DNA of 64,000 nt from assembly GCA_034620365.1 (NCBI GenBank), contig JAQGEQ010000077.1, positions 81,853-145,852 on the forward strand. Reading direction: 5' to 3'. The notes beneath the pieces were generated by a model. That model saw only the letters and a list, made by a program, of their open reading frames with translations, searched no databases and was not told where the DNA came from. This document shows, piece after piece, positions 2,101-64,000 of this stretch. Within the stretch, counting starts at the first letter, position 1, and each line of letters begins with the position of its first letter. The position numbers and the translations under genes were made by a program. Source of the stretch: Pegea sp. RAD2-039. Lineage: Eukaryota > Chordata > Thaliacea > Salpida > Salpidae.

Positions 2101-5100
2101 ATGATTGAACCGAACTATCAGTTTGAAAATTCTTATGGATTTGAAAATAAAAATTTCAAATCTGATCTTACAGATGGTTTCTTTGAGATGGAAGATATTA
2201 ACACTTTTAATAAACAATATAATCCTCTAAAAGAATTTGAAAATCTAAGTTCAATTTCACTCTTTAAAGAGGTTAGTGAAAAAAATGATTTTAAACTAAA
2301 TAATTAAAAAAATTGTTATTACAACTTTTATGATCTTAACTTGCCATAATTTAAATAAACATTTTCAGCCTGATATTGAAAAAAATGTCATCAAAAATGT
2401 TGATGAAACTGAGAGACCAATAACTCCTATAAATGATTCAATCACATTTTCTCCAACCTCATTCGAGTTGTTGTCAGAGTTTATAAGAAGAAGAATCCAA
2501 CCTCGAATTAGTTGGAAACATTTAAAAGAAGTGGAACAAGCCAACATGGTTTGGATTATCTTCCAAAACCTCACGTTGCTTTACATCTGTTTTTAGGCTT
2601 CAATAATTTTAGCTGAAGCCAGGTCAAGGTTTCGAACATTTTGTGAAATTGCAGATGATCCATTTCTATCTAAGAAACTAAACAAAGAACTAAAAAGAAG
2701 AATCACTGTAAAGTTTTGACACTCAAAATACCTTTTAAATCAACTTGTTTTTAGGTTCAAATTGTCTCAATCTGTGAACAATTATTTTTATATCATTCAA
2801 ATCATATAAAAGTTTTAAACAAGAAAGGGGTTTATAGCAACTCAGCAAACTTGACTCGTACATATATGCAATTAACAATTGATGCAGATAAATTGTGAGG
2901 ATTTTGAAACTTAATCAATTAAATGTTAAATCACAAATTTTTTATAGTTTGAACATCTTTGTGATCAGAAGAAGAATCTTGGAAGGCTTAAAACAAGAAT
3001 TGATTGATGGATATCGACCTGGAACCATTTGTAAAGATGAACGATTCTTGAAAAAACTTGACCCTGTAGTAGCAACCTTACCAACTGTAACTTTCATCTT
3101 AAATTATCTTCTTTTTTAAACTTCCTTTAATTTAGATCCCAAATCATTTATCTTTTGACTCTTTGATCAGAACAAATAGTTTAAGCTCAGATTCGAACAT
3201 AAAAACATTTACATTGATGAAGCAAATCCAGGATTTAGACAACCAAATCCCTCTGCTTCCATTCGATAGATATGAGGCGAGTTATTTTTAATCAAATCTT
3301 CAAAATTAACAAAAAAATTTAGATTTTCAAAGAGATAACTGAAAGGAAGCAAATAATCGAGAAAGATAAATCTGAGCCGGACATCTCGTCTTCGGATAGT
3401 GACGTCACTGAATCAATCAGTTTGCAATCTCAAGAACAAATGCTGCAAAGAAGATTGTAATTTCTTTCTTCAATTTATCGTCAAATTAAATCTTCTTCTG
3501 ATCAGAACACTCAGCAAATGTCCCTCCCATCCTAATCTCAAAACCTTAAAACTTCTTGATGAGCTCTCCAAAGAAGTAAAAGACTTTTCTGATCTTCATC
3601 TGATCTTCATCTGATCTTTTTAGCGAAGGGGAATCACCTACTTGTTGATGAGTTCATCTTCTTCAACTTCATCTTCAAGTGGATCTGAGGGACTCTCTAA
3701 ACCTTATCTCTGCAAATCCATCGATACTGCGCTCAACAGTGGGTTGTCATGACAACGATGATAATAACCCGATGACGTCATCTTCGACAGAGATCGGATG
3801 GGACCAGAAGATTAATAATAAGAAATCCGTCGATTACAACTCTGATCTTCGGGAAGATCTCAATCGCGTTACTAAGCAACTAGCGATTCGAAAACGCGAC
3901 CCTGAAGATGAAGATGGAACCATTCCTTCTCTTATACAAACCATCACTAGGTGACTTTGACTTTTAGTGAACAGCTGATGACGTCAGCGCTTGTAGAATT
4001 CAGAAGCGCGATCGACTGACTCGTGATGGAAACAAATTGGATGTCGGAATTGACGAAAGATTAAAACAAATCAAAGAAAATGAAAATTGGCAAATTCGCA
4101 AAACTAAACACCCCCAGCCTCCAATTTTACAAATTAAAATGGTAAAGTCATCTTCTGATCTTCTTCTGATCTTCTTCTGATCTTCGCAGCCACCAAAAAG
4201 TAATCCAGTCGATGGAAGCGAATTGATAACGCGAACCTGTGACGTCACAATCCCTAACAATGTCCAGCTGCCCGACTCCGAGCTGGCCAGGTGTGGTCCT
4301 ATATCTAACGTGTTAGCTGGTCACGTGCCCGCTGACGTCACAGACGAAATGGACGAAACAGTTAGAGGTGGTCGCGACATCGTCGAAGTTTATGACCAGT
4401 TGTGGGACACTCTTTCTTTTTTACATTTCAATCATGATTGTGATCCTTTGGTAGTTATTAAAATGGTCGTTTTCTGATGTGTCCTCATTCTGAGTCTTTC
4501 AGATCATCGTGCCTCCGAACAAAGTAGATCTCGATTTGATCCTAGCATCTTCAACTCTTTCTAAACCTCCTTCACAACAAATTATCAACACAGCACTCAC
4601 AAAAAAGTCTTTGGAGGTTGACAGGTGACCACTAGGTGGAGTTTTGTTAACGCGATGAGTTTGTAGATGAGACAAATTGCACGGAAACGAGAGAATGAAG
4701 ATTTTGATGATTTGGGAGATGTTTCTCAATTCTCATCTTGGTTAGAAAGGTGGAAATCGACGATAACTGCTGATGACTACATCAAATACCTTTCAACGCA
4801 AGTCTGTTGCTAAGCACAAATTGTTCAGTTGTCATGACGTCTGTTGCTAGGAAACCGACTATTTGAACGCAATCTTTCACTTCTATGAAAGTCCAGAGCA
4901 ATCTGTATCAAGTGCATCATCAGAAGAAGAAATTGATTCAATCAAGTAAAATCAACATCAACAATTTTTAGTTTCATTCATTTTTTGTTCAGGTTGTTTC
5001 AGAACAAATTATCTGCAATGCTGGGGGCAAAAACTGCTCAATGGAACGGGATGTGGAACGCACAGAGCGTGATTCTTGGAGGTTTAGGGGGTCTACCGGA

Positions 5101-7614
5101 TCCTAATAGTAAGTCTAATGATATTTATCTGATTCGTCTTAAAAATTTTCTTCATCTTCAGAATGGGAAGATTTTAATAATGAAGATTTGACTACTGAAC
5201 AACCGAACTCATCAGATATAAAGTAAATAATCTACATCTTATATAGTTATGATGAAAAATGTCTTCACAGAGAAGATTCTTCATCTATATTAGTAAAGAG
5301 TGATGCAGTCATTATCAACTCAGATTCATATGAGGAACTACCAGAAGCAGAGCCTTCTGTTAGTGAGATAGGCAAAATATTAAGAAAGTCTTTTGTAGAG
5401 AAAGAAAGACCTTCAAATAATACAGCAGATTATAATAATAGTTTCTCGACCATGTCGTCATTAGAAGATACTATGTTTGAAGATGGTTTGTTTCATTGCT
5501 TTTTATTTGCTTGCAAAATTGGGTTGGTTGTTGATTGGTTGTTGGTTGCTGGTTGGTTGTTGATTGGTTGTTGTTTTGTTAATCTGAGATTCTTTCAATA
5601 AAAGTTGTTTTGAGTTAGGTTCAAATCATCATTCATTTGATGAAGATCAGAAGCGAAGAAAGTCTTTTGTTGAAAATCCTGTAGAGTTTGATGTTTATGG
5701 AATTCGTGACCGAACAAGTAGTCCGTCCTCTATGCAGTCGAAAACCTTGCAAAAAAAATTTGAATCCAGTAAAACAAAAGAGTTTGATTTAGAAACTGTA
5801 TTGAAAAAACAAAGTTCAGTTGAAACTCCGAAAGATGATGAGGACATAAAATTGATGATTCCGAAGATCAAACCGAATATTCACATATCGGCTCTTGGGG
5901 AGAAGATTAGAGGTCCTGATGTCAAAGATAAGATCAGACGGACAAATTGGATTAATGAACCAGATGATGATGAGAAAGTTATTAAAAAAGATGAAGAAGT
6001 TGATGAAAGAAGAGATTCTATGGAAGATGAGATTGAGATGATGATAAAAGATCAGATTGAAGATTTGAAAAAGATAAATGCAGTCGAGAAGAAGGAAGCT
6101 GAAAATGAAGCTAGTGATTTGACGATTCACAAAATTAAGGATGTCTTGAAAGGTGATAAAGATTCTGGTGATTCTAGGAGTATTAAATCGGATTTTTTAC
6201 AGACACAGTTAAAAATGAAAATATTATGTTGCTTCCTTTCAAAAGTAAATCCATCAAAGGTGCAACGATCAGAAAGAAAACAAGATTTCAGGATTTTAAC
6301 AAAACCAACTTTTCCGACATCGATTTATCTGCTTTGATTGATGAAGAAGATCAGGAAGAAGATCAGGAAGAAAATCAGGAAAAAGATGAGGAGAAAGATC
6401 ATGAGGAGATTAAGAAAGATGAAAGGAAAAAAACGAAGAAATCTCAAGAAAAAGGTGGAGAAGTTGAGTTTAAAGATTATTTGAGAGATGAGCACAAAGA
6501 TGAGAAAGTTAGAGATCGGGACCAGGAAGATCAGGACCAGGAAGGTCAGGACCAGGAAGATCAGGACCAGAAAGATCAGGATCAGAAGGATAGAGGAGCT
6601 ATAAAAAGAGAAAGTGTGAATTGGTATTCTTCAGATATTTATCCAAATAATTATCGAACAAAGAGAATCCGTTTGTTGAGTAATTTCTTCCAAGACTTCA
6701 TGACGTGAGAACTTCTAAAGACTTTTTCATTTCTACATTTTATCGATTTTTTACAGAAATCAAAGAAAGAATGATTTGAAATTTCAAGAAGATAAAACTT
6801 TGATGAAATTACAAACAAGAGTTGAAGGAGTTTGGAGCTCTTTGAAGATGCAAGATAAAGACATGATGGACATGGCAGCTAAACTTTGTAGAAATCCTTT
6901 TAATCAATTCATAGAAAAGGTTTCTAAAGTCTTGAAGATTCTAGGGCACTTTTTAATAATATTTTTTAGGACGTAGAAATATGGGAAGAGATCTCGTCTT
7001 TGATTATCCGTCGCGAATCATATTTATCTGAATTGGAAGCGTTTGAAAGATTTGCATCCGATCCGAGAAGACTTTTCAACAAAGGTTTGTTGCTCAGAGG
7101 TTACTAAGGAGCTTCATGAGATGTTAGGGAGCTTCCTGAATTGCTAGGGAGCATTAAAATTTCAAGTTTTGATTCAAAATTATTCTGTAGTAGGAAGCGG
7201 GAGTGTTGGAAGATTGGAAGAGGCTAAAAGAAGATCGAAGCTTTATAAAAGTTTGGAGCATTTGGAAAAAAAGATAAAACCAAAATTAGAAGAAATTTGC
7301 AAAAAATTTAATTTTGTTGTAAAATACAATGGAAGAAAATACGCGGAAAAAATGGCTTCTGACAAGTTTGTCGTCAGTTTTTATTGTTTATTTACTAATT
7401 TGTTGTTTTTAGAGTGGAAATGTTATATTGGTTACAACAAGAAAGAAGGTGTGAAGTGGTTGGAGGAGAAAGAGGAAAGAATTTCTATCGAGATCTTCTA
7501 GATGTAAATCGAACAGCTTTTGATGAAGTTATTTACTTAAATAAATCTCAATTTCGACCCTTATCTACAATTCCATCAATTCCTACAATTGAGAAACGAA
7601 ATGATGTTTTATAA
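2101..7614 (+). CDS. CCDC87-like coiled-coil protein (multi-exon)
   Basis: About 17 exons can be chained with GT-AG junctions from ATG 2101 to TAA 7612-7614. Examples are exons starting at about 2370, 2615, 2755 and 2948, and a 52-nt intron at about 6151-6202 that restores the frame. Conserved-looking blocks are ARSRFRTFCEIADDPFLSKK (exon 3), VQIVSICEQLFLYH, a segment with QWNGMWNAQSVILGGLGG, and a C-terminal part with FERFASDPRRLF, RLEEAKRRSKLYKSLEHLE and KVEMLYWLQQERR. This order resembles my recollection of CCDC87, a sperm/ciliary protein; the family call is from memory. The region at about 6340-6600 is a low-complexity acidic D/E/Q/K repeat. The exon around 3743 contains the palindrome GTTGTCATGACAAC in frame (CHDND), and several exons carry TGACGTCA. 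An intron at 5517-5580 holds a GT-rich minisatellite. Some middle exon borders are uncertain. The alternative is an unrelated coiled-coil ciliary protein. Confidence 0.6.
5517..5580 (+). repeat. GT-rich 11-bp-type minisatellite (intronic)
   Basis: Degenerate tandem copies of a TTGGTTG/TTGATTGG unit lie in an intron of the CCDC87-like gene, in the same orientation as the larger arrays at 9640, 17915 and 55248. Confidence 0.7.
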
Positions 7615-8536
7615 AAGGGAAATTCCCTCAAGTGAATTTATGTTGTCGTTTTGAAGAGCAAATATTTGTTTGTAATGAAATCAGTAATTCCCTTCAACTC
7701 AAATTTGTTGAATGTTTCAACATGAAGTCGAATGTTGAATTCGAAATATTTGATTAGTTCCACTATGGAATTTACGCGTTTCAAATTTTCCTCATTTCAA
7801 AGAGTAAAATAAACAAAAAAGTTTTTGTAAAAACTCTTTTCTTCAAGTTTCTAATTTGAAACTTTTTGTTGAAATTTCAAACAAAATTTGAAGAAAATTT
7901 TCTTTTAAAAAATAATTTGAAAAATAGAAAGTTTCAAAATCAAATTTGAAATCAAATTTATTTAAATGTCGTTGAAAAGGAAGCAATTGTTGGAAATATG
8001 ATTTAGTGACTTGAAGTTCATTTTACAAAAGATTTTGAAATAAACTAAAGTTTCTAATTTGAAAGTTTGAAGTAAAAGATTATTGAAATAAATTCTCGAT
8101 TCGAAGTTTGTTTATTAAATACTAGATTCGATAATTGAGTTAAAAATCTTAAAGCAATCTTTTAGAGTTTTTCGACTTTGTAAAAAATATCTTCTCAAAA
8201 AAGTTTCAACATTTTTATTTTTTTATTTGGTGAGTCTTTCACTGATTCTGAGATTAAAAAAGATAAAAATCTAAAAATAGAAAAAAGAGAAAGAAGGGGA
8301 GAAGTCGAAATAGTGAAGAAAATTTTGATCTAAGGCAGAATACAAACTTGAATTTAATTTGAAGTAAATTAAAAGAATTTTTATGAATTAGAAAGTTTTT
8401 AGGCCATCTGAAAATTAGTTTTAATTGCAGACGTTTTGTTTTCAGTATTTCAAATTATTTGTAAACCAAAAAAAGCTGGGCCAGAAACCAATTCTGGACA
8501 TTTTAGTAATTTTTTTTGGAAAAGTTTTCATCCAAA
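7615..8536. other. Intergenic DNA between CCDC87-like and coiled-coil/MAM genes
   Basis: AT-rich, no coding signal. Two acceptor-like sequences end at 8430 (ttaattgcag) and 8445 (tttgttttcag), upstream of the ATG at 8537. They may mark a 5'-UTR cis intron or a trans-splice site. No clear polyadenylation signal for the upstream gene was fixed. Confidence 0.5.
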
Positions 8537-11500
8537 ATGAATTTATTTCAAATTTCTCTTCTTCTAATCTTCATCATCTGTATTCAAATCAATTTTGGAA
8601 TCACTCAAAAACCTGTAGCTCAGGTGAGACCTTTACCTGTAATCGCGATTACTTGATGACGTCACAAAGGATTGGCGTGACGAAGCCGGAAGTGATTGGA
8701 ATTTTAATAGCTCACTGATGACGTCAATTCAACTCAAATTGGCAAAGTTTAGAATTGTTACCCAAAAACGCTCACTGCAACGCTTCAGTGCATATGACGT
8801 GTTATCGCTACTTTTGTCATGACAACGACATTTTTTCTTATCAGGGAAATCCCCAAATACCACCAAGAGTCGCCCCTGCCGCGACACCGGAACACATGGC
8901 CCGTGCCCCGAGAGTCCGACCTTGGATGGGCCCCGTGGTCCACCGAAATGATTTGAATTGGTATTATGACAACATTATCAGGATGAGCAGCGGAATCCAA
9001 CAGATCACTGTCCAAGTCCAACAAATTGCGGCCCAGATGATGACTCTATCATCGGATCATTCATCAAATGATGACACTTCGAGTGAGTCCTTAGACATCT
9101 TAGATCTTCCAAGAGAGTGTTTCATCTGAAAGTTTGTTGAATAGTAAAGAAATTGATAGATAAAGTTGGTTAGATGTCATCTCAGTAATTTGAGTCTCTG
9201 AAAATATCTTAGCAACAAAATGAGAATTTTATTCTCTTTTTTAATTAGCTTTAAATCGCAAATTCATATTTCAATCTTTTAACATCAAAACTAGTTTAGT
9301 TTGAACAATAAAAATATTGAAGGCTATATAAGAACCAACTGTGTTGGGATCTTCTTCTAATTTGTGTCTTGTTTGAATCAGGATTACCCTCATCCGAAGA
9401 TATTCCTGGTGATAAATTAAGTGAACACAAAGAAATGATAGATTTGATCAATAAGGAACTGGGATATTTAAAGAATAGTAACGATAATATGCAACAAAGA
9501 ATTACTAACTTAGAAGGTGAATCATTTAAAGAAAAATGATAAATTAATAAATATTATTTGGACTGTAATAATTTCTTCATCTATTTAAAATCTAACTCAG
9601 TTTTGTATTTAACCATTTCATCTATAATAGATATTTATGTCAAGTAGTTACTGGTTAGTTGCTGATTGGTTATTTATTGATTGCTGGTTAGTTGCTGGTT
9701 GATTGTTGGTTGGTTACTGGTTGGCTATTGGTTGGTTCACAGCTGGTTGCTATTTGGTTGCTAATTGGTTACTGGTTAGTTGCTGGTTGGTTGCTGATTA
9801 ATTATTGGTTGGTTGTCAGCTGGTTGCTATTTGGTTACTGATTGGTTAACTGGTTGATTGCTGGTTGATTGCTGATTGGTTAAATTGCAAAAACTGTAAT
9901 TTAACTGAAATATTTTCTGATGAGAATCTTTAATCAAAAGCAAATCAAAACTTACTTTTTTAATTTTCAGATCTTCATCAGACACAAAAAACAGAGTTAC
10001 AAAGTGTACAAAGCAAAATTGAAGTGATGACGTCATCTTCTGACGTCACTTCAAGTAACCAAATATCAGGTTTGAAAATAATTTTTAGTTGTTCTTTCAA
10101 TTAAATCAAAAGTTTTTGAAAAAGTTTAAGTTTGATGATTGAAAATCGGATTTAAAATTAATTTGCAGAATCTTCAGAAGAAAAATTGAATCTTTTGGCT
10201 TCAGAAGTCGATATTCTAACTGCAAGAATCAATGTAACAAGTACAGGTGTTTATGAATTGACCAATTATGTAGAAAGGATGTCCACCGATATTGATGATT
10301 TAGAAAAACGTTCAAAGGTTTTAAAAGGTTTAGAACAAGTCTCTTTAAAATAGTTTTTTAAAATACTTCGTAAACAACAAAACTTTTTCGTCTAGACAGT
10401 ATCTTGTCGACTATAATTTTGTACTTCTAATATGTTGTCATCTACTTGTAGCCAAATATTTCGAAGTTTTTTTATTCAAAAATTATTTTCAAAACTTGTT
10501 TAGCAAAAACTGCTGCAAATAATCGTTTATCAAGCAAAGTGATCTTGTTGGAAAAAGATATAGAAAATTTGAAAGGTAAGTTTGACTTCAATTTCAAAAA
10601 AAACTGTTATCTGTAACTTTACTGAAAGTTATAATTTCGATGAATGAACATTTTTTTAGAAATTTTGGTTTTAGTAATTTGATAAGTTTAAAATAAAGGT
10701 CAAAGCAACCACGAAGCTTCAAACGAAGAAGAAGCCATTAAAAGACGATTGGTTGAAATCGTGGAAGTTCAAACATCACAAAAACTCGATTTAGAAGTAA
10801 GTTTCAAATCAAGCAAATTGAGAAAAAAAAATAAAAAAAATTTCAGGAATTGACAGAAAAAGTCGAAGAATTCGAAACAAGGTCAAAAAGCGACAAATCT
10901 GCGGATAATTTGCATAATTTCAATGATTTGTCAACCTCAATTCATCTCATTGAAGAAACCTTAAGGAGTACAAGAGGTAGAGATCTCTGAAAAACTCCTC
11001 AAACTAATATTAATCTTCATCAGATGACCAATTAATCAAATTTGACGGAATGGATGAAAACTTTCTTTCCTTGTCTCAAGAAGTCACCGAACTTCGTCGT
11101 CGCCTTGACAACCACGAAACGCTCGATGCTTCGATGTCAAAACAAACTGATATGAGTGGATTTGTTGAGGTGAAATCACTGAAGCGGAGCCTCGAGAAAA
11201 TCTTTTACGCTCTATTGATTTTCTTCACAGGATCTCTACTACAGAATTGATGACGTCAACAACACGTTACACGCGACATTAGGTTGGGGAATTCCCCTCT
11301 TGTGACTCTTTATCTGATGTTTTCCGGTTTCAGCGAAAAATTCTTCGAATTTTGATTTGAAAAATTTGAAAGATTTAAAAAATCGATTTTCGGAAGTAGA
11401 AAATCTCTTCTCAAACTTTGGGATTGTTCGCGCGGATTTAATGAATCAGAAAGTTCTGTTAAAAAATGCGAACAAACAAATCAATCTGTTGCAAAATAAG

Positions 11501-14500
11501 TAAGTCGTTCACGCCATTAAACTAGGTGCTAGAAGCAGGCGTCTCTTATAAGCAGCTTAGACCACTTTTAACTGTGAAGTTGCTAACCGGTTTGTGAGTT
11601 CAAATTCAATCGCATCGTCGAAGGCATCGCGCTAAATACTGCCACCTATCGAGCACTATGAGTTAAAGAACCACAAAGTTAGATTTGGGTCATCTAGGAC
11701 AGGAAAAGAACCTACACTCCGTTGATATTACTGTCCCAGGTCACTGGGCCACACCATTTGAAATCGAGTATAAAGAGTCGGAGATAGCTGAGCGAACGCT
11801 GCTTAGCAAAGCGCATGCGCAGATACAAGAGAAGTAAACGAGATAGCAGCAGACGAGTCCTCAGCACCTTAAAAAAGCTTTTGTAGCTTTCCTGGTCCAG
11901 CAGTTTTTACAAATTAGGGATCTGAACCACTTTCTATAAAACTTTTAAAATCTCGAAGTCGCGTCGCGTTTATTCGCGATTCAAAAATTGAAAAAAAAAT
12001 TTCCGATAATTTTTAAGCTTTTGAAAACAATTGAAAAATTTAAAAGATTCTGATTCATCAGAATCAACCAACCTCTAAACCACTATAATGACGTCATCGC
12101 GTCTTAGTCTCTAAGATCGAAGTTTTTCAGCCACAAAAGTTTGGAGCAGGTTGTGAGTGGAAGAAGCTCTGAGATCACTTTTGTAAAAGATTTAATGATG
12201 AACGCGACAGAGACACTCTCTGATATGAGTATGTCAATTGCAGAGCAGAAATTTGATATGGATCAACTTAATCAGGTGATTTTACGTGTTAATGAAGTCA
12301 TCAATTGACACATCATCCACACCAGGTGCTAATCCACACGACAGAAGCTGATCTAAGACTTCAGTATGATATCGAACAACTCAACATCACTTTAATGACA
12401 ATTGTTCATGGAAATGGTTGGAAAGGGAAAACCCCTGTTGTGATACAAAGTCGTTTGGAACGTTTAGAAGAAGATTGTCACGTGATTAACGCATCGATCC
12501 GGAACGAGATCAGATCGATTGATGAGAAGATTAATGAAGTTGATGTTCAAATGATGAAAACGAAACAAAAAGAAAGTCTGTTGATGTTAGAAAGTCAAAG
12601 ACGAAGAATACGGATTCTTGAAAGTAAATTAAAAAACTTTTATAATAAATATTATAATTTTTTTTATAAATGTTTTCTATTAATTAATTCCGAGTGCGTT
12701 GCTGAGATGGTTGCTAAGATAGTCGCTAAGCTTGTTACTAAGGTGATTGCTAAGGTGATTGCTAAGCTTGTTACTAAGGTGATTGCTAAGATGGTTGCTA
12801 AGCTAAGGTGATTGCTACTAAGCTTGTTACTAAGGTGATTGCTAAGATGTTACTAAGGTGATTGCTAAGCTTGTTACTAAGGTGGTGATTGCTAAGATGG
12901 TTGCTAAGTTCGTTACTAAGGTGATTGCTAAGAAGGTTGCTAAGATAGCTTTTGAGATAGTTGCTAAGTTTGTTACTAGAAGCAAACAGGCTCAAAATTT
13001 CTTGAATTTTTAAGTACTAAAAATTGGTAAACTTAACCAACTATTGTGACATCACAGGTCAAGATTATTCAGCTTTTGTTCGAAAACGCGATTTAGCGAC
13101 TTTAAATACTAGTTTGTCGGAAGATTTGATAAAGATGAGTGTTTGGATGAAAGAAGTTGCCTCAAGAGTTGATGGAATAGAAGAAAGAATCGAATCTTTG
13201 GAAATCCCCGATTATGAAGTGAGTTTGAGGAATCACGTGATACTAAGGTTGGTCACGTGATTATCGAAGACATGACGTCATCCCTTCGTCGTAGTTATTG
13301 TTAGTCATTTAATTAGATTTGTGAAATTATAAATTTAAATACTTTTATCAGTGAATAATTAACAATTTGACCGAATTTTAACGCTGAAATTACCGCAGAA
13401 AGCTGGAAATATTACTGATCCTAGTTTTGAAGTTGAAGTGATAGGAATTAATGATTATTGGTCAGAAGGAAAATCCAAAGATGAAAACTCGAACAGCCAA
13501 TTAAAAGAAATTGCCAATAAATTAAGTTTGATTCAATCACAGGTCAATAAATCGATTGAAAACGTGAAAAAAATTAACAAACTTGTTCAAATAGATAAAT
13601 TCGTTGACTCAAATCACTTCGAATGTTGATGAAATGAAGTTAAAAATTGAAACAATTTCACCTTTGAAGGAATTAGTTGTTCAAATATCCAATAGTATCA
13701 GTAGCATCGATTCAGATGTCTCTGATATCCAAAAAGCTATTAGCAAAAATGAAAACTTCAAAATTGAATTTTCAGGGAAGTTTCAAAGACTTCAAAATTA
13801 TTTCGAAGATTTAAAGTTAGTTTGAAGGTGATCTGGACACGTGAAAAGATCTAATTAGGTGTCTTCTGCAGTTCATCTTTAAACAACAGCAAATCAAGAG
13901 TCGATCTCTTAGATGATTCAGTTTTAAACCTCCGAAGGACCATAAGAACCAGCAACAGATGGTTGATTGGGAATTTTACTCAGTTCAGAGCCACTTTAGC
14001 ATATCAAGGAGCTGAAATGGGAGCTTTTGGTCAAGCTCTTCGACAATTAGTACATCAAAAAGACCAATTAGCTGCTGGTTACCTTCAAACTGGATCCAGA
14101 ATTGAAGTTATCCAGTTGAAGTTAAAAGATTTCAAATCTACCTTCAATCAAAGATATGAAAATCTTGAATCAAAGTTGATGGATCAAAATGACGCGATTT
14201 TAAACGTTTCAACGACTGTCCAGCAAAATCAGGGTCTTCCCGGTCTCAGTGAAAGTGATCCGGTGTTTACAAGAGCACTAGTAGGCGTACGAGAAAGTAT
14301 ACGAGACCTTCGCGAAGACGGTGACGTCACAAGAATGAAATTATCAAATTTGGTGATCAAAGATCGAAGTTTGTTAAAGAATTTGACAGATTTAAAAGAT
14401 GAATTCAAAATTATTCATTCCATCGTTTCCATAATTCGTAAAAATGAATTTCGTTTCGATGATGTCATAATGACGATGCAAGAACGCGACCAAGGTTTTG

Positions 14501-22779: not shown

Positions 22780-22845
22780 CTTTCAAACTGTTCTTCTTCC
22801 TTCTCTGTTAGCTTATTTTGTTGAAGCTAAACATTTTAAATAGTA

Positions 22846-25847: not shown

Positions 25848-28519
<2,672 letters not shown>

Positions 28520-39408: not shown

Positions 39409-39411
39409 GAA

Positions 39412-46718: not shown

Positions 46719-47179
46719 CATCTTATGTCATTGTTGGATGTTTTGTTGAAACTGTTTGCAGATGTAAATAAACTTTTTTGTTGAATTTAAATTTTTTGGA
46801 ATTAAATTCTTGAAGTTCTCAACTAAATTCTAAATCTTATCAGAAGTCAGAAAAATTTAATTTTTTTAATTTTGTGTCTCATTTAAAGCAATTAAAACTT
46901 ATTTAATGATGAAATTTGAGATATCCAAAAATGTTCTTATTTCTTTTAACCTTAAAATAACTTTTTAGCTAAGTGGTCAAAAAAATAAATTATTAATAAT
47001 TTGAAAACAAGTTTATGATTTAAATAATCAACGTGACGTCATTTTTGTGTCTCAATGATGATGATCAACTTCCTGCATCAATCAAATTGTTTTATTTTTA
47101 CAATTTTTCAAATTTCACTGAAAATAACTGAAGTTAAGATTTTCGAAAAAATTTTGTTACACTAAGAATCCTTTCTTTA

Positions 47180-51405: not shown

Positions 51406-51988
51406 TATCAAACTGAAATTATACCAAAGGACATTTTTACTTCACATATCTTATAAGGTCTTTGAAAAAGGTTTCTGGGAAAATATCTCAACTGACTGAT
51501 GACGTAATTAGTCGATGACGTCATCACTTCTACGAAACTGATTTTCAAAGTTCATTTTGAACATTAAACGATGACGTGTTTGTGTTTCAAAACATGAACC
51601 TTGAAAAATTTTAACTTTTCTGCCTTAAACGTGATGTGACATGAAAAGTGTTTCAAATATAAAAAGAAAATTTAGAAACTTCAAAATCACAAATCATTTT
51701 TTAAGGGTTTCATCTTCTATATTTCAACAAAATTTTATTGAAAATAAAAAAGATTTTTTTGAAGGTGTGTTTTCATTCATAAAATTTTTTAATAAATAAT
51801 TTCTCTGTTTTAAATCGAATTTTGATTAAAATTTTTTTAAACTTTTAAATAATTTTTCATTCAATTTAAAAATTTCAATTTTTCTTTTTAGATTCAAATA
51901 ATTTCAAAAAACTTCGAATTTGAGCTTTATTGACGTCATCATTTCTTGTCGTTAACTGACTGTATAGTGACGTCATCACTTCTCGAGG
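51406..51988. other. Region upstream of the C-type-lectin-like gene
   Basis: AT-rich with four TGACGTCA or close variants (51515, 51931, 51968 and TGACGTAA near 51500). No signal-peptide exon was confirmed here. Confidence 0.45.
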
Positions 51989-52823
51989 ATGTGTGAAAGA
52001 AGCTGTGAGCTGCGAAACCAGTTATTTACTTTCCACCACATCTTTCTCGATTACGTTGCGTCTCAACGTTTTTGTAAACAACTCGGTGGTCGCCTAGCAA
52101 CTTTCAAATCTGGCGTTTCGTCGTGGAACGCGATTCGTAATTGTTGTCATGGAAACGACATTTATCGAATTGGGTTGAAGCGATGTGAAAATGGGAAATA
52201 TCGATGGGAAGAAGCGAAAGAGTGCGATGATGAGGAACTGATCCCTTCATTTGCATCAAATCGCAAATGTTTAGTTGCTAACGTCCGATTGGCTAATCGA
52301 ACGGGATTTCCCCTTAGAGGATTGTCTGACTGTACTCAACTGAAGCCGTTCATTTGTGAAAAGTCTCTTGGAAGTTCGCTGCCTAATGATACAACTTCTC
52401 TTCCTGATTCAAATGATCTTTTGGATTCAAATGATCTTCCTTTTTATTTTGTGATCTTTGGAGCAATCTTGCTTTTCATTATCTTGCTCCTTCTCATTTT
52501 TGTGATCTTGAAGAAGAAGAAGAAGAAAAGGAATAAGAAAGAAGTGAAACTTTCACATTTCAACTTTTATGATTCAGCAAATAAAGAAGAGAGAAGAATA
52601 TCTAGATTATTTCGGAGGTTTGTTAGCTCGCCGCTGATTGGTTGTTTGAACTTTCAAATTGTTTTTCAGAAAATCTGAAGACGAAAAACTTTCCAACAAG
52701 TTCTATCTCCCGACTTATTTCGCTTCCACAAAACTAAAAACTTTCAAAAACAGCGACAAAGTGAACAGCGAGAATAGTGACGTCATCATCACTGACGTCA
52801 CCTCTTTAAAATCTTGTGAATGA
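51989..52823 (+). CDS. C-type-lectin-like single-pass membrane protein
   Basis: Two exons are visible: up to 52617, then 52670-52823 (intron 52 nt, phase 2). The extracellular part has C-type-lectin spacing: ASQRFCKQLGGRLATFKS (helix region), CC and CENGKYRWEEAKECDDEE in the middle, and CTQLKPFICEK at the end. The calcium-binding EPN/QPD and WND motifs are not seen, so sugar binding is doubtful. A transmembrane helix follows (FYFVIFGAILLFIILLLLIF), then a basic stop-transfer stretch of lysines and a short cytoplasmic tail. No signal peptide precedes the domain at the first ATG, so an upstream exon is likely missing and the start is provisional. The domain exon includes GTTGTCATGGAAAC, and exon 2 has two TGACGTCA in frame (DVI and DVT). 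AATAAA follows at 52907. Confidence 0.7.
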
Positions 52824-52906
52824 AGTTGAAAATCTTTGACAGAAAATTCATTTTTTTTTTTATAATTGATTTTTTGGTGTTTAAAAAAGTTGTAAAGAAA
52901 TTTGTT

Positions 52907-52912
52907 AATAAA
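52907..52912 (+). promoter_or_regulatory. Polyadenylation signal AATAAA
   Basis: Canonical hexamer 84 nt after the stop codon of the lectin-like gene. Confidence 0.55.
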
Positions 52913-55247
52913 AAGTTTTTGAGTTTAAAAAAAATCTTTAATTGGATTTTAATTATTTAGATTTTTTAGTCAATTTCAAAAACTCTTTTTTTTTTAATAA
53001 TCTTTTTTTAAAGAGAAAATTTGAAATCAAATTTTGTTGGAAAGGAAATTTTGAATTTTTTGAAATTTAATAAAGTCTGAAAATTTGATCTTTTCATTTT
53101 CAATATCTACAAATTAATGATTATTAGTAATTAGCTAAAAATCCATTTTCACTTTAATTTTCTAGAATTATTTTTTTAATTTAAAATTCACAAATTTCCG
53201 TAGAAATAAAATCTTAACAAAAAGTAGAAAAAGATTTTTAAATTCCCAAGTTTCGTTACTTTCAAAATTTCTGAAGACCTTCCGGAACATTTCTACCGCT
53301 TGATGACGTCATCAACATTTGTTTATTCACTGATTTATGCGATGAAACGGAATTGACCGATGACAAAAACTCCCCGAAATTCCACCAATATGTCCAATTA
53401 ACTTTTTACGCTTTTATTTTTAATCCAATTTAGTGTTTGGGTTCCAACAGCGTCCAATGGCGCCCAATCGCTTCTAACGAGCGATGCGTCTTCACAAAAG
53501 CGGATATGACGTCATCAGTTGTCAATTTGTTGATGTCATTTGCATTATTCAAAAGTTTGAAACTGGAAAATTTGTTTAAACAAATTTATTCATTTTTTTT
53601 AATAAAATCTAAAATGAATAAAAAAGAATGGAATAAATTACAAACTGATTTTATTTCTAAATGAATGATTTGATATAAAAAATGTAAAATAATATTTTAG
53701 AAATTATCCTAAAATTGATTTTGTGCAAAATATCAAAAAATGAATATTCGAAATTTAATCTGAAAAAAAAGAAAAAAATTTAAGCATTAAATTAAACGGG
53801 GAGTTCTTCTAGATTCTACCAGCTGTGGACGTGCTTATAGAAGCTTTTTGGTGAATTAAAAAAGCTCAGCTGCAAGCGCAGGTGCCGTCCAAACAAAACA
53901 TATATTTCTTTCATTAACGTTTCAACTGAGGTGTGTTCATTGAAGCGTGTTATGACGTAATTGCGCTATATAATATGACGTCTGAAATTTTTTCGAAGTT
54001 AGTTGAGATAAAATATCGAAGAATGTTAGAAGTTTATTTGTTAAATAGAATTTATTGTAATTAAAAATAGTTAATAACAATAGTTAGTTAAGTCGTTAGT
54101 TAAATATTAATTATAAATAGAAATTAATTTCTATTTTATAAAATATTTGTCAAATTTTTTTTGAAACTTTCAAATATTTTTAAATGATTTAAAAAATTGT
54201 AAAATTTTAATAACTTTAAATTTTATGATATTAAAAAAATATAAAAAAAAGTTTTTTAAAGCAAACCTTGTTTGTCGAAAAATTTTTATGATAAAAAAAA
54301 GTTTATTAAAAAAAATTTGAATAAAAAATTATTAAAAAAGAAATTTGCAAAAAGCAGAAAAAATTATTTTAATTTAATTTTCTGCAACGAATTAATTGAA
54401 AATTGAATTTTTCTAGATTTCAAATTTTCAAACTTTTACAGAAATGAAGTAAGTAAAAAAGATTTTCAAATCAATTTGTTGAAACTGTTTTTGAGTTGAA
54501 ATTTGATTTGAAAAGTTTTTCACACTCATACAGGTGTTCAAACATCACGTCACTATTCTTTCAGCCTTTCATCTATTTTAATTAAAACTTTTCAAATTAT
54601 TCTCACCTTTTTTTGTAATGTTTTTAAAAGTGAGAAATTTTTACTACAAGAAAAGTGAATTTATCAAAACTAATCACAAAATTTTAATATCTTTTTTTTG
54701 AACAAATATTTTTATTTGACAAATATTAAATTTCAAACTTTTTTAATTCTTTTTTTAAATATTCACCTCTTTAAAAAAGTCCTTCCAAAAAAATGTGGAA
54801 TGTTCATCATTTGAAATTTTAAACATCAGATTGGTGATCATTAAGAAGCTTAACAAATAATCAAAGACTTTTTTTTTGCCCTTTTACGTTTCCAGGTCGT
54901 TTTTCGTTTGTCACGCTTCAGTAGTTTCGAGTAAGCGAGAACTTATCTTTACTTTTTAGTAGTTTTCAATTTTGCTGGTTCTAGCTGTTTTTCTGCAAAT
55001 TGTTTTAGTTGTTAAATTTCCAGATTGTTATTAAAATTTGATGTCTTTCAGCTTCAATTATTAATAGAGTTGTTGTCTATTAGCTTCCTGCTACAAAATA
55101 TTTTGCTATTTTTTAAGTTTTTTTGCTTTTTGTTTATTTAATTATTCTTTTTCCTGAAAGTTTTTGCAAAATTTAAAATAAAATTTTGAAAATATGAAAA
55201 AAAATATTTTTTTTCAAATTTTTTTCAAATTTTTCATTATTTATTTT
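52913..55247. other. Intergenic DNA
   Basis: Mostly AT-rich; TGACGTCA at about 53303 and 53507 and a GC-richer patch at 53800-53980. Short frames around 53437 have no supporting features. Confidence 0.5.
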
Positions 55248-55556
55248 CTGATTGGTTGCTGATTGGTTGTTAATTGGTTGGTAGTTGGTTGTTTGCTGAT
55301 TAGTTACTGATTGGTTTCTGATTGGTTGTTGGTTGGTTGTTGATTGGTTACTGATTGATTGTTGATTGGTTGCTGATTGGTTACTGATTGATTGTTGGTT
55401 GGTTGCTGATTGGTTGCTGATTAGTTACTGATTGGTTGTTAATTGGTTGGTGGTTGGTTGTTGGTTGGTTACTGATTAGTTACTGATTGGTTGCTGAATG
55501 GTTGTTGGTTGGTTATACTGATTAGTTGCTGGTTGGTGATTAGTTGGTTGTTGGCT
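55248..55556 (+). repeat. GT-rich 11-bp minisatellite
   Basis: About 28 degenerate tandem units (CTGATTGGTTG, CTGATTAGTTA, TTGGTTGGTTG) upstream of the RGM gene, same strand and same unit family as the intronic arrays at 5.5, 9.6 and 17.9 kb. Confidence 0.9.
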
Positions 55557-55939
55557 CTATCATTATAAGATTTTTGTTTCTAATTATATATTTTTTTATT
55601 TGTTGTAAAATAAATAAAAGAGCTTTGTTGTTACGAATGCACTGATGACGTCACACTTTTGATGACCGCGTAGTAACCTCAGAATGTGCGAAACTGACAA
55701 TAGTGTCTATGACGTCATCAGGCTCATTTTACAGCTGTGTTTATTGAAGTGTGACTGAGCAATCGATCGTGTTCAATGAAGCGGAACAAATCAGCTGACA
55801 AGCTGATCAAGTGACAAAATCGCGTTTTAAATTCGCGATTTTTTTTTGTAGATTTCTGCGCTTTTTTGTTGGAGATTGTTTAAATTTTACAAGATTTGAT
55901 TTTTTATCATCTTTAAAAAATGGAAAAGCGATAGTTGCT

Positions 55940-57782
55940 ATGTTACGTCATCAATTGCCAACTTCATCGCTTTCTTACATCATCATACTGCTGCTTATGT
56001 TGACCGGTAAGTTAGCGTGTTATGACGTCATATTAATTGTTAGGTGATGACAAAAGTAAAAGATGACGTCATTATCATCTGAACTCTATTCAGCTGAGCA
56101 CACTTGGGTGATGACGTCATCAGCCTGTGTGACGATTCAAAGTTTTAATATTTTAAAAAGAAAACAAAAAATCGTGACTTTGTCGATTAAACGTCACGTT
56201 TGGATGTTGACTGAGTAATTGACGGGATTTGGGGGTCGATTTGCCCGCTGAAAATTGACATAAGCCTCGTTGGTGAAATTAATTTAGAACTTTTTGCTTT
56301 TTTAGTTGAAATAGGAGCTCGGAGAGATTGCCTCGCGACGAAATGTTTGAAAGAATATAATAAAATAAATCCTCCTCGAGTTGAGTTGGATAATGCAGAA
56401 ACTAATTTGTCTCTTTCCAAATCAAATGATGAATTTTATGAAAGTCTGAAGGTTGCTTGTAGAGCTGTAAGGACTTTATCGAGATGCTTTCGGAAAGTCG
56501 AGAAAGTTTGTCATGGAGATCTTTACTTTCATTCTTATAAAAGGACTTTGACGATTGAAAAAAAGAAACATAAATGTAAAATTATGAAGAAATATTTTCG
56601 GAAGAAAACTCTTCAACAAACAACAGCAACAACAAACACAATAACAACAACAAACACAACAACAAACAAATCGATTTACGAGATGGGACCTTTTGTTCAT
56701 TGTTCCTTATTTGGTGATCCGCATCTTAGGACTTTTGATGATCAATTCTTCACTTGTAAGATACAAGGGACTTGGACATTGGTGGAAAATCGCCATTTAG
56801 CTGTCATGGTAACAAACGCGCCGATATACGAAGGAAGTGCCGCGACGATTACTACAAAAGTAAATGACAAATTCTTTTTCTATTTTCAATCAAATTTTAA
56901 TTCTTTAAACTTCGGAAAATTCCCCAAAATGGAAATTAAATGAAGCAGAACGATGACGTCATTACTTCTTTACAGATCACGATCTTAATTAAAAGCGACG
57001 AAAACCGCTTTTACGTAGCTACGTCATCAGCACCGCTTCCAAACGCGTTTAAAGACGGAAGTACTCGTAATAAGCGCGTTATTATTCGACCAATCACTTC
57101 CGGTCGTCACGTGCAAATCGATGTGGTTGTCATGGCAACCACAATTGTCATACGTCACGTGGGCAATTATTTGACGTTTGCAATCCGAATGCCTCAAGTT
57201 TTGACTGACACAAAAACTACGGGTGCGCTTTGCGCCGTCGGTTGTCCCAAATCAAATCAACTTGAAACGCCTTCAAGCGGTCAAATCGATGAAAAAAGCG
57301 CGCGACATCACTGTCGTGTCACTTTGCTGACGTCATTGGGTCGTAGTGAGTTGGATGATGACGTCACAGTGGCGTCACGTGTCGATCAAGCAACTGTGAC
57401 ATCATTTGAGGATCCATCTTCGTTTTCGTTTCGATTATTACAAGCTGCTAGCGACGTGACGTCATCAAAACGACGACGACGTAAACAACGCGATGTGATG
57501 ACGTCATGTGATAATTTTTATTTTGATTCGTGCGTGTTTGATCTGATGACGTCAGGAGATACCAATTTGACTCTAACATCAGGAGTAGCATTACTAGATG
57601 TCCGTGATCTTCATCATTTGGGATCATATGCTCCAGGAGCTGATGTCCGTGTGATTGAAAGATGGCCGGATGCTGATCTGTGTCATCTTCAACATCGTAA
57701 ATCTTCTTCTTCGTCATCTCAAATTATTTCATCTCATTTTTTTGTCTTCTTATTTTTCCCATTTTTTATGCTAATTACGTGA
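55940..57782 (+). CDS. Repulsive guidance molecule (RGM) homolog
   Basis: Three exons: 55940-56005, 56306-56859 and 56976-57782. RGMs are GPI-anchored BMP co-receptors and neogenin ligands. Exon 1 encodes a signal peptide (SLSYIIILLLMLTG). The N-RGM part has Cys-rich helices (RDCLATKCLKEY, LKVACRAVRTLSRCFRK, CHGDLYFHS). The C-RGM/partial von Willebrand D part has CSLFGDPHLRTFDDQFFTCK with the Gly-Asp-Pro-His autoproteolysis site, VMVTNAPIYEGSAATIT, VIRHVGNYLTFAIRMP and FYFDSCVFDLMTSGDTNLT. The C terminus is a Ser-rich stretch and a hydrophobic tail (FFVFLFFPFFMLIT) as for a GPI signal. Exon 3 is unusually rich in CpG palindromes: several TGACGTCA and CACGTG, and GGTTGTCATGGCAACC. An inserted low-complexity part (about residues 180-230 of exon 3) has no vertebrate counterpart that I recognise. 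Confidence 0.93.
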
Positions 57783-59404
57783 CACCTTATGACGTCACTA
57801 AATCACATTTACAGCATAGCAACGTCAAAGATTCTCCTAGCCACGTGACGTCATCCCTTCTAGATACAATTGTTGTTGTCTTTTTTTGAGAAATTTTTTT
57901 ATTTTTTAGAAAAAATCTTCAGAATTTCTTGAAACTTTTTTTTTGTCGATTTTTAATCGTTTTTTTTTCTTCACTGTTTCTTTGATTAGAGCTGCCTGAT
58001 GACGTCATCAGCTGATGACGTCTTTATTTGATAATTGTGAAGAAGTTTTTTTTTGTTGAAATATTTTTGAGAAATTTTCTTTTATTTGAAAATTTGAATA
58101 AAAAATTTGCTGAAAAAAATTTTGAAGATTTCTTCGAGATTCAGTTAAAATTTCAACAAATATTTTAACTGATAATTATTTGGTGATTTTCTTTAAGATT
58201 CAATTCAACAAAGAAATAAATTTCGATTTAATCAGTTTTAAAAAAAGATTAAATTTTTTGTAAAAGAGTTTTTTGAATAAAAAGAATTTATTGAAAAGAT
58301 TTCGAATTAAAAAATGAAATTTGGAAACATTTTTATGAGAATTTTCCAAATCTGATTTTCCTCCTTTTTTAGAAACACAAAAAATCTTTTTGAAAGAATT
58401 AAATTAAAAAAATAACTTTTTTTTGGTTTCGAAATAAATTTGATTAATAAAAACTTCTCTGAAGATTCAATGAAATAAAAACAAAGAATTTTTTAACTTG
58501 ACATTTTTTCAATTCTAAATTTTTTGTGGGAATTTTTGACTCATAAAAATTTTCTTATATCAAATTTCAAAAAGTCATAAAAATAAAAATTCGAAATAAT
58601 TATTAGAACCTCTTTTCTACTCTTTGAAATTTTTTTCGACCTTTTTTCATTTTCCAATTCCTAGCCACAAATTTTCTCAGCAATTAAGTTCTAAAATGAG
58701 ATAATAGAAAAAATATTTTACATCTACCAGCTCACTCTTATGACGTCATCACAACGTCGCGAAGGTCTCTTTATGTCTTTATGACCTTTTTAATTAAATT
58801 ATTGACAAATTTGAGGAAAATTACTTCTTTTAGAAATTACTTTTATTTGAGTTTCAAATTTCATGCTTCGCTGACTTTCTTATTAATTCTAATTATGATT
58901 CATCTGAAAAAAGAAGTTTTGTCAACACCAAAGTTCGAAAGGAAACTCAAAAACTTTTCGAGTTGAAATTAAACCCCCAAAATTTCCCATTTTACAAAAA
59001 ACTTCTTTTGACAAAATTTTCTCAATTTGCAGATTGGATTTTTTTCAACTTTTTTTTCGAAGATTCGATTTTCTCGATTTGGTTTCAAAAACTTTCAAAT
59101 AACTTTTTTATCAAAAAGTTTAAAGAAATTAAAAATCTGAAATTTCTGACATTTTAATATTTTGAAATTACTTAAAAAAGTTAGAAAAAGTTTTTAAACA
59201 AAGTTAAGTAAATTCACAAATAGTTTTAAAGATGTTTAGGACTCTGCAAAAATGTTTTCTCATTTTCTCCCTTGATCTCCCAGACTGTCAAATCAATTGG
59301 AAGAACAACTTTCGAAAATTTTAAAAAATCGAAAATAAATTTTGGAATTTTAAAGTTTGTTTTAAAATTACAAGTGTGATTAAAATTCAGAAAAAATGGT
59401 TGAT
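57783..59404. other. Intergenic DNA downstream of RGM
   Basis: AT-rich; four TGACGTCA within 57789-58745. Two short Phe/Lys-rich frames at 58781-59157 have no domain or exon context and are not called. Confidence 0.5.
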
Positions 59405-61290: not shown

Positions 61291-61299
61291 TATCAGATA

Positions 61300-62769: not shown

Positions 62770-64000
62770 ATGATTTTTAAACATTTCATGATGTTGTTGG
62801 TGTTTTGTGTTTGCACTAATGGTGGTGAGTTCAATTTCATAATAATTATTTGATTTCACAACTAATTACATCCTGCTGAAATTTGAAACTTGTTCAGCTG
62901 AAGAAACAGTGACAGCTTTGCAAGGTTCCGGAGTTATTGAAGGGACATCTGCTGAGTTTAATTGTAAAATGGAAAACTATACCTACGACTTTTGGCGAAA
63001 AGAAGACAAATTTATGATCAGTCTCAACGACAAGATAATGAATTCAAGGTTCGTTGTTTTAAGATCTTTAGAATATCTTCAAAATTGTTTTTCAGATTTA
63101 GTTTTTTAAAACGCACAAACACTGAAAGTAATATAGTGTTAGAAGAAGTAACTCTACAAGATGCTGGAGAATATTCCTGCAAATTTGGAGATGGGGTTAT
63201 GGAAGTGACACAGACAGTTGTACTTGTTGTCAACAGTTTAGTTTTATTTTTAATTTCATTTAAGTTATTTCAATCTGTTTCTTTCAGAAGCACCAAAAGT
63301 TTCAGTTGAAAAATTCACTGATGACGTCATTGAAGGCGAGAAGATGACACTCGGGAAATGCTTTGCCCAAATGTCCAAACCTAAATCCACTATCAAGTAA
63401 CTACTCGAAACAAATCAACTTTTTTTGACTTTTATTCAATTAGATTTATTGATGAAAACGGAAATGAGGTTGAGTCTCTAGATGAGGAAGAATCTGAAGT
63501 TTTTAAAGTTTATAATACTGAAGTGACTAACACTTCAAAACAATTGACTTTAGTTTGGACTAAACAAATGGATAAATCTGTTTTTAGTTGTCTTGTAGAA
63601 TATCCAGAAGTGAAATCCATCAAAATAGAGCTTGGTTCTGTTAATGTTAAATGTAAATTTGTTTTTAAAACTTCAAATATAAATAATTTTATGAAATTTC
63701 AACAGATAAACCTTCAGTTAGTTTTGATGGAAATGTTGAAGATATTATGATTCAATTTGAAGATAGCTCTTTAGATATTTTGTGTCTTGCAACTGGAAAC
63801 CCGAAACCACATCTTTCTTGGAGTTTTAAACCTTTTGCAAACTCAACGGACCTCCTATTTTCAAATGGTTCATATTTTAATTGATTTTAACTTCAAATTT
63901 TTCATCAGATATTTTACAGAAACAAAACGTTTAAATATCCTCAGCTTACCATTGGGTGTTAATGGGACTTTCCAATGTACTGCTTCAACTGATCTGTTTA
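62770..64000 (+). CDS. Immunoglobulin-superfamily protein, 5' part
   Basis: Exons 62770-62824, 62898-63048, 63096-63235, 63288-63396, 63444-63652, 63706-63867 and 63920 to the window end join in frame. Exon 1 is a signal peptide (HFMMLLVFCVCTNG). The first Ig domain has AEFNCKMENYTYDFWRKED and LQDAGEYSCKFGDG, that is Cys, Trp and the D-x-G-x-Y-x-C hallmark. The second has a Cys in LGKCFAQM and FSCLVEYPE. The third begins LDILCLATGNPKPHLSWSF and continues FQCTASTD, with an I-set-like ring. This resembles cell-adhesion molecules such as the basigin/neuroplastin or NCAM groups, but the truncation prevents assignment. TGACGTCA is inside exon 4, giving TDDVIEGEK. No stop codon in the window. Confidence 0.85.

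What the first reader, a model, noticed from the sequence alone, without database searches (positions are those of the whole stretch)
3390..63335. The palindrome TGACGTCA is about 100-fold over-represented in this window
By hand count about 70 copies occur in 64 kb, where about 0.5 would be expected at roughly 30% G+C. Many extend to TGATGACGTCATCA. They are found in introns, intergenic DNA and coding exons, and on genes of both orientations, so they are not promoter-bound CREB/ATF sites in the usual sense. They are absent from 33.3-47.0 kb (POLR1B, LINEs, viral ORF, UFC1), from both long LINE-A copies, and from the satellite. Possible explanations are a self-spreading short palindrome, a conversion or recombination signal, a host-DNA tag, or a chromatin or DNA-elimination signal.
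Basis: partly seen in the sequence, partly recalled or inferred. Interest (0 to 1): 0.93.

Follow-up and report, generated by a model that had tools for sequence, protein, structure and literature searches.

The report
Iterated CRE palindrome in tunicate genes
One animal genome, from a small-genome tunicate, carries the exact eight-letter palindrome TGACGTCA about thirty times more often than its mirror-order control, packed into gene-sized islands that include protein-coding exons, as if something reads or spreads this exact word; what does so is not yet known.

Summary
The window has 69 TGACGTCA (0.54 expected from base composition). The 105.7-Mb genome has 27,792, against 969 for the reversed word. 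The host is a tunicate.

Copies cluster in islands a few kb long. In the RGM gene they lie in the 5' flank, introns, a coding exon and the 3' flank. They are absent from the LINE-like ORFs, the satellite and several other genes. The pattern is nearly all-or-none: in island DNA 162 exact copies face 82 copies of all 24 one-mismatch words, a shape close to cyanobacterial HIP1, not to uptake sequences or Chi. Three coding sites lie in conserved, ungapped protein motifs, so they arose by substitution, not insertion. In two island proteins, close relatives keep all 26 residues coded wholly inside sites while flanking residues change (P=0.005 in stretches I chose, 0.058 overall). Density rises from 0.04 to 4.6 per kb with CpG o/e.

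My reading: a dimeric, ATF/CREB-like protein reads the palindrome in gene bodies kept free of CpG methylation, and copies are maintained at the DNA level. Whether selection or a conversion/repair drive maintains them is open. Reader, methylation state and function are inferred, not shown.

The parts
3400..32424 (.). Dense stretch with 45 of the 69 TGACGTCA copies, 3400 to 32417
   Evidence: Exact positions
31074..31198 (.). 21-bp minisatellite with 5 exact TGACGTCA copies and one unit that has lost it
30818..31336 (-). Coding sequence of a DDVT-rich protein with 8 in-frame sites (GAC GTC read as D-V)
   Evidence: relative P0136 starts at the same Met
33303..36833 (-). POLR1B, single open frame, no site: site-free gene
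47034..47041 (.). Single site at the edge of the site-free stretch
51516..58748 (.). Dense stretch with 22 sites, 51516 to 58741, including the RGM gene
55646..55717 (.). Two sites (55646, 55710) in the 5' flank of RGM
56023..56119 (.). Three sites (56023, 56064, 56112) in intron 1 of RGM (intron bounds inferred from P0121)
56954..56961 (.). Site in intron 2 of RGM, just upstream of the inferred 3' splice site
56974..57782 (+). RGM coding exon 3 with five sites: 57328, 57359, 57457, 57499, 57547
57547..57554 (+). Site inside the conserved motif VFDL-L/M/I-TTGD, here VFDLMTSGD; no gap, hence gained by substitution
57790..58007 (.). Three sites (57790, 57846, 58000) in the 3' flank of RGM
63322..63329 (.). 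Last site of the window

Best explanation
TGACGTCA, best extended as TGR-TGACGTCA-YCA, is a highly iterated double-strand recognition site in this tunicate. A dimeric protein of the ATF/CREB (bZIP) type binds it with strict demand for both half-sites. Binding takes place across the bodies of a subset of genes that stay free of CpG methylation in the germ line, and helps to keep those bodies open and unmethylated. Copies arise by point substitution anywhere in an island, coding or not, and are then retained because bound copies keep the island working. Shown: over-representation, exactness, islands, presence in several gene compartments, gain by substitution in three cases, link to CpG o/e. Supported but not proven: retention across a split between close relatives. 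Inferred: the bZIP reader, the methylation state, and selection as the retaining force.
For: Genome count 27,792 vs 969 reversed control. Island DNA: 162 exact vs 2.0 expected (Markov of 4-mers, sites masked); one-mismatch words 82 vs 40 expected. Flanks, symmetrised, prefer R at -1 (A 0.69, G 0.24), G at -2 (0.48) and T at -3 (0.64); R-CRE-Y is the bZIP preference as I recall it. AP-1 spacing TGASTCA is only 1.3-fold. Site density 0.04/kb at CpG o/e <0.3 (24 bins) rising to 4.6/kb at >1.4 (5 bins), 244 one-kb bins, Spearman 0.43. Site-poor sequence shows no CpG-decay remnants (TGATGTCA/TGACATCA 5 vs 5.4 expected), so islands attract sites and are not just survivors. Three coding sites in ungapped conserved motifs. 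Close relatives keep 26 of 26 residues coded wholly within sites vs 118 of 152 others in the same stretches. The genome has DNMT1-type methylases and bZIP exons. Ciona has sharply bounded methylated and unmethylated gene bodies (PMC3827831, sections 6 and 7 read).
Against: No methylation, binding or expression data. bZIP exon matches number only 12, so nothing singles out a reader. Transcription factors usually leave many degenerate sites; here near-misses are few. The relative comparison is protein-level only; P is 0.058 over whole proteins and 0.005 only in stretches I chose after seeing the alignment. Site-bearing minisatellite units do lose the site (3 of 19 units in L025, 1 of 5 shown in the window). 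PDH E2, expected to be housekeeping, lies in an island, against a clean tissue-specific split. Island and site-poor samples were defined by site density, so their CpG and GC contrast is partly circular.
Confidence: 0.4

Rival explanations
1. DNA-level drive with no benefit to the host. A repair or gene-conversion step tied to the exact palindrome favours alleles that carry it, so copies pile up in recombination-active, GC-richer islands, as proposed for HIP1 in cyanobacteria through methyl-directed mismatch repair.
For: Mismatch profile close to HIP1: excess one-mismatch over exact is 0.37 here and 0.30 for Synechocystis HIP1, against 1.98 for an uptake sequence and 6.16 for Chi (comparator counts from PMC1939737 Tables 6-7). 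The HIP1 repair model is in PMC4390886 (abstract and first part of section 3.4 read). Sites sit in coding exons at high density. Island sample GC 0.33 vs 0.28 in the site-poor sample.
Against: No candidate enzyme found: no N4/N6 methylase match; the C5 methylase compared with solved structures is DNMT1-type, and the two DNMT1-like loci fetched carry no site. No mechanism known to me that favours the motif-bearing strand in an animal.
Confidence: 0.3
2. The site marks meiotic recombination hotspots, as ATGACGT does through Atf1-Pcr1 in fission yeast.
For: ATGACGT lies inside ATGACGTCA; the fission yeast M26 hotspot is a CRE-like heptamer bound by Atf1-Pcr1 (PMC9775316, passages seen). The island sample is GC-richer, as biased conversion would give.
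Against: Broken chromosomes are repaired from the partner, so hotspot motifs tend to be lost, not gained (established knowledge). The same review says that a full CRE in ade6 is not bound by Atf1-Pcr1 and does not facilitate recombination. No recombination map.
Confidence: 0.1
3. The word acts in RNA (UGACGUCA in transcripts), for splicing, stability or duplex formation.
For: In RGM, sites follow the gene: introns, an exon and the 3' flank.
Against: Sites also in the 5' flank; a palindrome gives no strand test; no RNA reader known to me.
Confidence: 0.06
4. Ordinary CREB/ATF promoter and enhancer sites.
For: TRTGACGTCA is reported in Ciona notochord enhancers (PMC11001920, one passage seen).
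Against: 15 sites in 3.7 kb and 14 in 1.9 kb elsewhere in the genome, five inside one RGM exon, exactness far beyond usual binding-site degeneracy.
Confidence: 0.05
5. CpG survival alone: unmethylated genes simply keep CpG words.
For: Density tracks CpG o/e.
Against: The site is 214-fold over composition in islands; after masking it the highest 8-mers are 19-fold (CACGTGAC, also 13-fold in site-poor DNA) and 15-fold (CGTCATCA, a piece of the extended site).
Confidence: 0.03
6. A short mobile palindrome or transposon footprint inserted many times.
For: Uniform core with variable flanks.
Against: Three coding sites lie in ungapped conserved motifs; an 8-bp insertion would shift the frame; the flanking TGA/TCA is graded, not a fixed duplication.
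Confidence: 0.02

Closest known systems
HIP1 (GCGATCGC), highly iterated palindrome of cyanobacteria
   Same: 8-bp palindrome, very high copy number, sharp mismatch profile (0.30 vs 0.37 here)
   Different: Animal; sequence is a CRE; concentrated in islands; no prokaryote-type cognate methylase found
DNA uptake sequences of Pasteurellaceae and Neisseriaceae
   Same: Short exact word accumulated in a genome
   Different: Near-misses strongly enriched in the one compared (1.98 vs 0.37); not palindromic; no uptake known to me in tunicates
ATF/CREB response element (CRE, TGACGTCA)
   Same: Same 8-mer, R..Y flanks; found in Ciona enhancers
   Different: Not promoter-bound; gene-sized islands; several per kb
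Fission yeast M26/CRE meiotic hotspots
   Same: Contains ATGACGT, bZIP-read, M26 lies in a coding sequence
   Different: Not known to me to be iterated through that genome; hotspots should lose motifs
Periodic An/Tn clusters (PATCs) of C. elegans
   Same: A DNA signal in genes that protects germ-line expression from silencing (PMC7725773, abstract)
   Different: Non-coding A/T periodicity, not an exact palindrome
Mosaic gene-body methylation of Ciona
   Same: Sharply bounded gene classes there; here gene stretches differ strongly in CpG o/e
   Different: No iterated palindrome is mentioned in the abstract and two sections read

Membership tests
HIP-type iterated palindrome | Exact palindrome far above expectation, coding DNA included | tested here: met
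HIP-type iterated palindrome | One-mismatch words little enriched relative to the exact word | tested here: met
   0.37 vs HIP1 0.30
HIP-type iterated palindrome | Cognate sequence-specific DNA methyltransferase in the genome (PMC4390886) | tested here: inconclusive
   N6/N4 methylase 0 matches. C5 methylase 11 matches, of which I read two: L155 is DNMT1-type and L156 is 52% identical to it. The other nine were not read and no specificity was measured
HIP-type iterated palindrome | Spread over the whole genome (recalled) | tested here: not met
   Clustered: 48 of the first 100 sites of contig C1 lie in clusters of 4 or more spanning 34 kb of 1.54 Mb (mean 3.7 sites if uniform)
DNA uptake sequence | Graded enrichment of near-misses | tested here: not met
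   0.37 vs 1.98 for the A. pleuropneumoniae sequence
DNA uptake sequence | Preferential uptake of site-bearing DNA | not testable with these tools
   Needs experiment
ATF/CREB CRE | TGACGTCA with purine 5' and pyrimidine 3' | tested here: met
ATF/CREB CRE | Location mainly in promoters and enhancers | tested here: not met
   RGM: 2 in 5' flank, 4 in introns, 5 in coding exon 3, 3 in 3' flank
ATF/CREB CRE | Bound by bZIP protein | not testable with these tools
   Needs DAP-seq or CUT&Tag
Meiotic hotspot motif | Elevated crossover or DSB rate at the site | not testable with these tools
   No recombination data
Mobile element | Arises by insertion | tested here: not met
   Three sites in ungapped conserved coding motifs. 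Only these three were tested

The most novel reading that the evidence does not exclude
An animal genome carries its own highly iterated palindrome: a CRE-shaped 14-bp word that is written by point substitution through the bodies of a defined set of unmethylated genes, overrides amino-acid choice in exons, and is actively maintained by a sequence-exact process (a distributed chromatin mark or a conversion drive) not described in any eukaryote that I know of.
Probability: 0.4. Interest if true: 0.92.

Novelty: new variant of a known kind. Interest (0 to 1): 0.8.

Why it matters
If sites are held by selection, a simple DNA word may decide which gene bodies stay unmethylated, an open question in invertebrate mosaic methylation. 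If they are held by drive, it would be a eukaryotic case of a process proposed for HIP-like words in bacteria, strong enough to change protein sequence. Either way, one genome with population data would separate the two.

Tried and rejected
Helical periodicity of spacing: 215 non-tandem pairs up to 200 bp apart; those up to 150 bp tested, spectral power 1.0-1.4 at 10-10.5 bp, highest 2.6 at 8.25 bp, so no sign. Site-targeted tandem duplication: 11 of 78 arrays hold a site, 10.5 expected from random placement, so no enrichment ('two or more sites' looks enriched, 11 vs 4.0, but tandem copies make that trivial). Core more conserved than flank inside site-bearing minisatellites: units inspected by eye, no clear difference. 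Allelic or paralogous copy of the RGM island for a DNA-level comparison: only self plus three overlapping short hits (81%) at one place. Paralogues of window 3000-14800: 194 matches; the listed ones fall in two minisatellites. Prokaryote-type methylase: N4/N6 none; the two C5 methylase frames read are DNMT1-like. bZIP expansion: 12 exon matches, nothing unusual to my eye, no other tunicate compared. Mitochondrial cox1 for species naming: no match. Rfam on the window: nothing at gathering score. Literature: in the rows listed I saw no report of an iterated TGACGTCA in an animal; TGACGTCA with 'tunicate' gave 2 papers, one opened at its single passage, an enhancer motif, the other seen in the listing only. 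The library is open-access only and most listings were cut at 6-20 rows.

Mended: the k-mer ranking tables applied the site-poor background to island DNA by a scripting slip and overstate island enrichments (270-fold for the site, 4.7-fold for CGCGA); one search repeats them correctly (214-fold, also; CGCGA 3.2-fold). The counts and its list of named words are not affected.

Dropped rows and choices: dense and site-poor samples were defined by site density, so comparisons of CpG and GC between them are partly circular; loci L015, L017, L018 and L021 (5, 2, 4 and 1 sites) were left out of both sets; L008, L009 and L011 were picked because pattern listings showed clusters there. One search uses the window and 18 loci, these included. 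In one search I aligned 5 of the 15 RGM hits. In one search the first 14 residues of the RGM frame (intronic) were left out and the variable stretches were chosen after seeing the alignment. clusters use only the first 100 sites listed (contig C1).
Full report
Observation. The window contains 69 exact TGACGTCA; base composition predicts 0.54. Six extend to TGATGACGTCATCA. The genome that holds the window (105.7 Mb, 387 contigs) has 27,792 copies against 969 of the reversed word and 1,972 of the 14-mer against 0. The feature is therefore genome-wide, about 29-fold over the control, and this window is a dense part of it.

Host. The single-frame POLR1B at 33,303-36,833 has as best-scoring named relatives Clavelina lepadiformis (62% identity), Ciona (60%), Phallusia (60%) and Styela (56%), with an unnamed 63% match among them; the other animals listed score lower (120 of 1,165 hits listed). 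The host is a tunicate; I could not name the species. An 18S gene is present.

Islands. Among the first 100 sites listed on contig C1, 48 lie in clusters of four or more (gaps up to 4 kb) that together span 34 kb of 1.54 Mb; uniform placement gives 3.7 on average, 21 at most in 2,000 runs. Further listings show 15 sites in 3.7 kb and 14 in 1.9 kb. Islands hold genes: RGM and a weak, below-cut-off C-type lectin match, PDH E2, a formin FH2 exon, SAM-domain and SEFIR-domain exons, and a weak CUB match. Site-poor sequence holds genes too: POLR1B, and in samples without any site an MFS transporter, an HVSL-domain exon (USB1 type, as I recall the family), an amino-acid permease and a cadherin-like exon. 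Samples L010 (diphthamide-synthesis exon; 1 site) and L017 (GHKL-ATPase exon; 2 sites) are sparse but not empty. Gene classes are from small, partly chosen samples.

Compartments. In and around RGM there are 2 sites in the 5' flank, 3 in intron 1, 1 in intron 2, 5 in coding exon 3 and 3 in the 3' flank, with none in exons 1 and 2 (intron bounds inferred from relative P0121). The DDVT protein on the other strand has 8 in its coding sequence. No site lies in the LINE-like ORF stretches counted or in the 109-bp satellite.

Exactness. In TRF-masked island DNA (86.0 kb) there are 162 exact copies, 214-fold over composition; in site-poor DNA (92.8 kb) there is 1. A Markov model of 4-mers trained without the sites expects 2.0 exact copies in islands. 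The two CpG-transition words number 22 against 7.2 expected, and the other 22 one-mismatch words 60 against 32.7. Genome-wide, one-mismatch words number 37,125 against 27,699 for the reversed control. Of these 11,070 are the CpG-transition pair, control 2,673, which leaves 26,055 against 25,026. That control has GpC where the site has CpG, so this comparison understates the excess. The ratio of excess one-mismatch to exact is 0.37; the published counts give 0.30 for HIP1, 1.98 for an uptake sequence, 6.16 for Chi and 0.64 for a C. elegans 9-mer (PMC1939737, abstract and one results section read). If sites decayed neutrally at steady state, one-mismatch copies should be about as many as intact ones (my estimate). 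The excess found is about three to five times smaller, depending on the background model, so sites are either young or maintained.

Gain by substitution. RGM VFDLMTSGD aligns without gap to VFDLLTTGD in a solved RGMB chain and VFDLMTTGD in amphioxus; the site spans the changed residues. In PDH E2, sites at L024:5885 and 5795 fall in VDVNVAVST and IADDVKDL, aligned without gap to VDVSVAVST and IANDVVSL of a solved E2 chain. A third E2 site, L024:5721, lies in a stretch that the alignment skips, which I read as an in-frame intron. Insertion of a mobile palindrome cannot explain the ungapped cases.

Maintenance. Two short JGI contigs encode close homologues: P0121 for RGM (94% over 83% of the query) and P0136 for the DDVT protein (79% over 82%); whether both come from one species is unknown. 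Residues coded wholly inside sites are unchanged in 26 of 26, other residues in 340 of 389 (P=0.058); within the variable stretches 26 of 26 against 118 of 152 (P=0.005). Against the distant RGM P0122 only 2 of 10 site residues match while 115 of 250 others do; against three more distant RGMs 1 of 4, 2 of 5 and 1 of 4. These RGM sites are thus probably younger than those splits but older than the split from P0121. DNA of the relatives was not available, so protein-level constraint is not excluded, above all for the DDV repeats. Some site-bearing minisatellite units do lose the site.

CpG. Over 244 one-kb bins with 215 sites, density runs from 0.04 per kb where CpG o/e (sites masked) is under 0.3 to 4.6 per kb where it exceeds 1.4; the end bins are few (24 and 5) (Spearman 0.43; 0.48 within GC 0.28-0.36). 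Several site-poor gene frames are CpG-depleted (for example 0.15 for the MFS transporter), others are not (cadherin-like exon 0.91, late L010 frames 1.29). Ciona has sharply methylated and unmethylated gene bodies, methylated ones being broadly expressed (PMC3827831, sections 6 and 7). The genome encodes DNMT1-type methylases. I infer that islands are unmethylated. Site-poor DNA lacks decay remnants (5 against 5.4), so methylation does not explain why the rest lacks sites. With the site masked, the strongest 8-mers in islands are 9 to 19-fold, and the top one, CACGTGAC, is nearly as enriched in site-poor DNA.

Reader. The symmetrised flank is TGR-TGACGTCA-YCA. That flank preference and the preference for CRE over AP-1 spacing (TGASTCA 1.3-fold) fit an ATF/CREB-type bZIP dimer; the name rests on recalled binding preferences, and Ciona enhancers use TRTGACGTCA (one passage). 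The genome has 12 bZIP exon matches.

Verdict. A real, sharp, genome-wide iterated palindrome, written by substitution (three cases tested) into gene-sized islands including exons. It works like HIP1 in shape, but it is not spread evenly and no cognate methylase was identified, so I do not file it as a HIP. Whether selection for a bound gene-body mark (0.4) or drive (0.3) holds it is open.

Noticed in passing
L155:1180-3738 (-) and L156:49-2391 (+); also five more places: Seven long uninterrupted DNA-methylase frames (832-873 aa) in this genome. The two read carry BAH plus methylase domains; L155 is DNMT1-like and keeps the PPCQ motif, L156 is 52% identical and has lost it. This suggests an expanded, partly decayed DNMT1 family.
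   Followed up: partly
window:42838-43689 (+): Rhabdovirus nucleoprotein-like open frame (Pfam PF00945, E 2e-50) in the site-free stretch, likely an endogenous viral element.
   Followed up: no
window 14869-15366, 9647-9881, 17916-18144, 55248-55537: Tandem repeats of 11-bp period in several sequence families (TGATCTTCTTC perfect for 45 copies). Arrays like the one at 9647-9881 recur on many contigs.
   Followed up: no
window:30818-31453 (-): Protein with a run of DDVT/DDVI units, part of them encoded by site-bearing 21-bp repeats; one homologue found, on a JGI contig.
   Followed up: partly
island sample: CGCG-containing words such as CGCGA (3.2-fold, 0.4-fold in site-poor DNA) and AAATCGCG (13 copies vs 0) are enriched in islands.
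   Followed up: no
samples L006-L021; island and site-poor sets: The E-box words TCACGTGA (18 found, 1.16 expected) and CACGTGAC are enriched in island and site-poor DNA alike.
   Followed up: no
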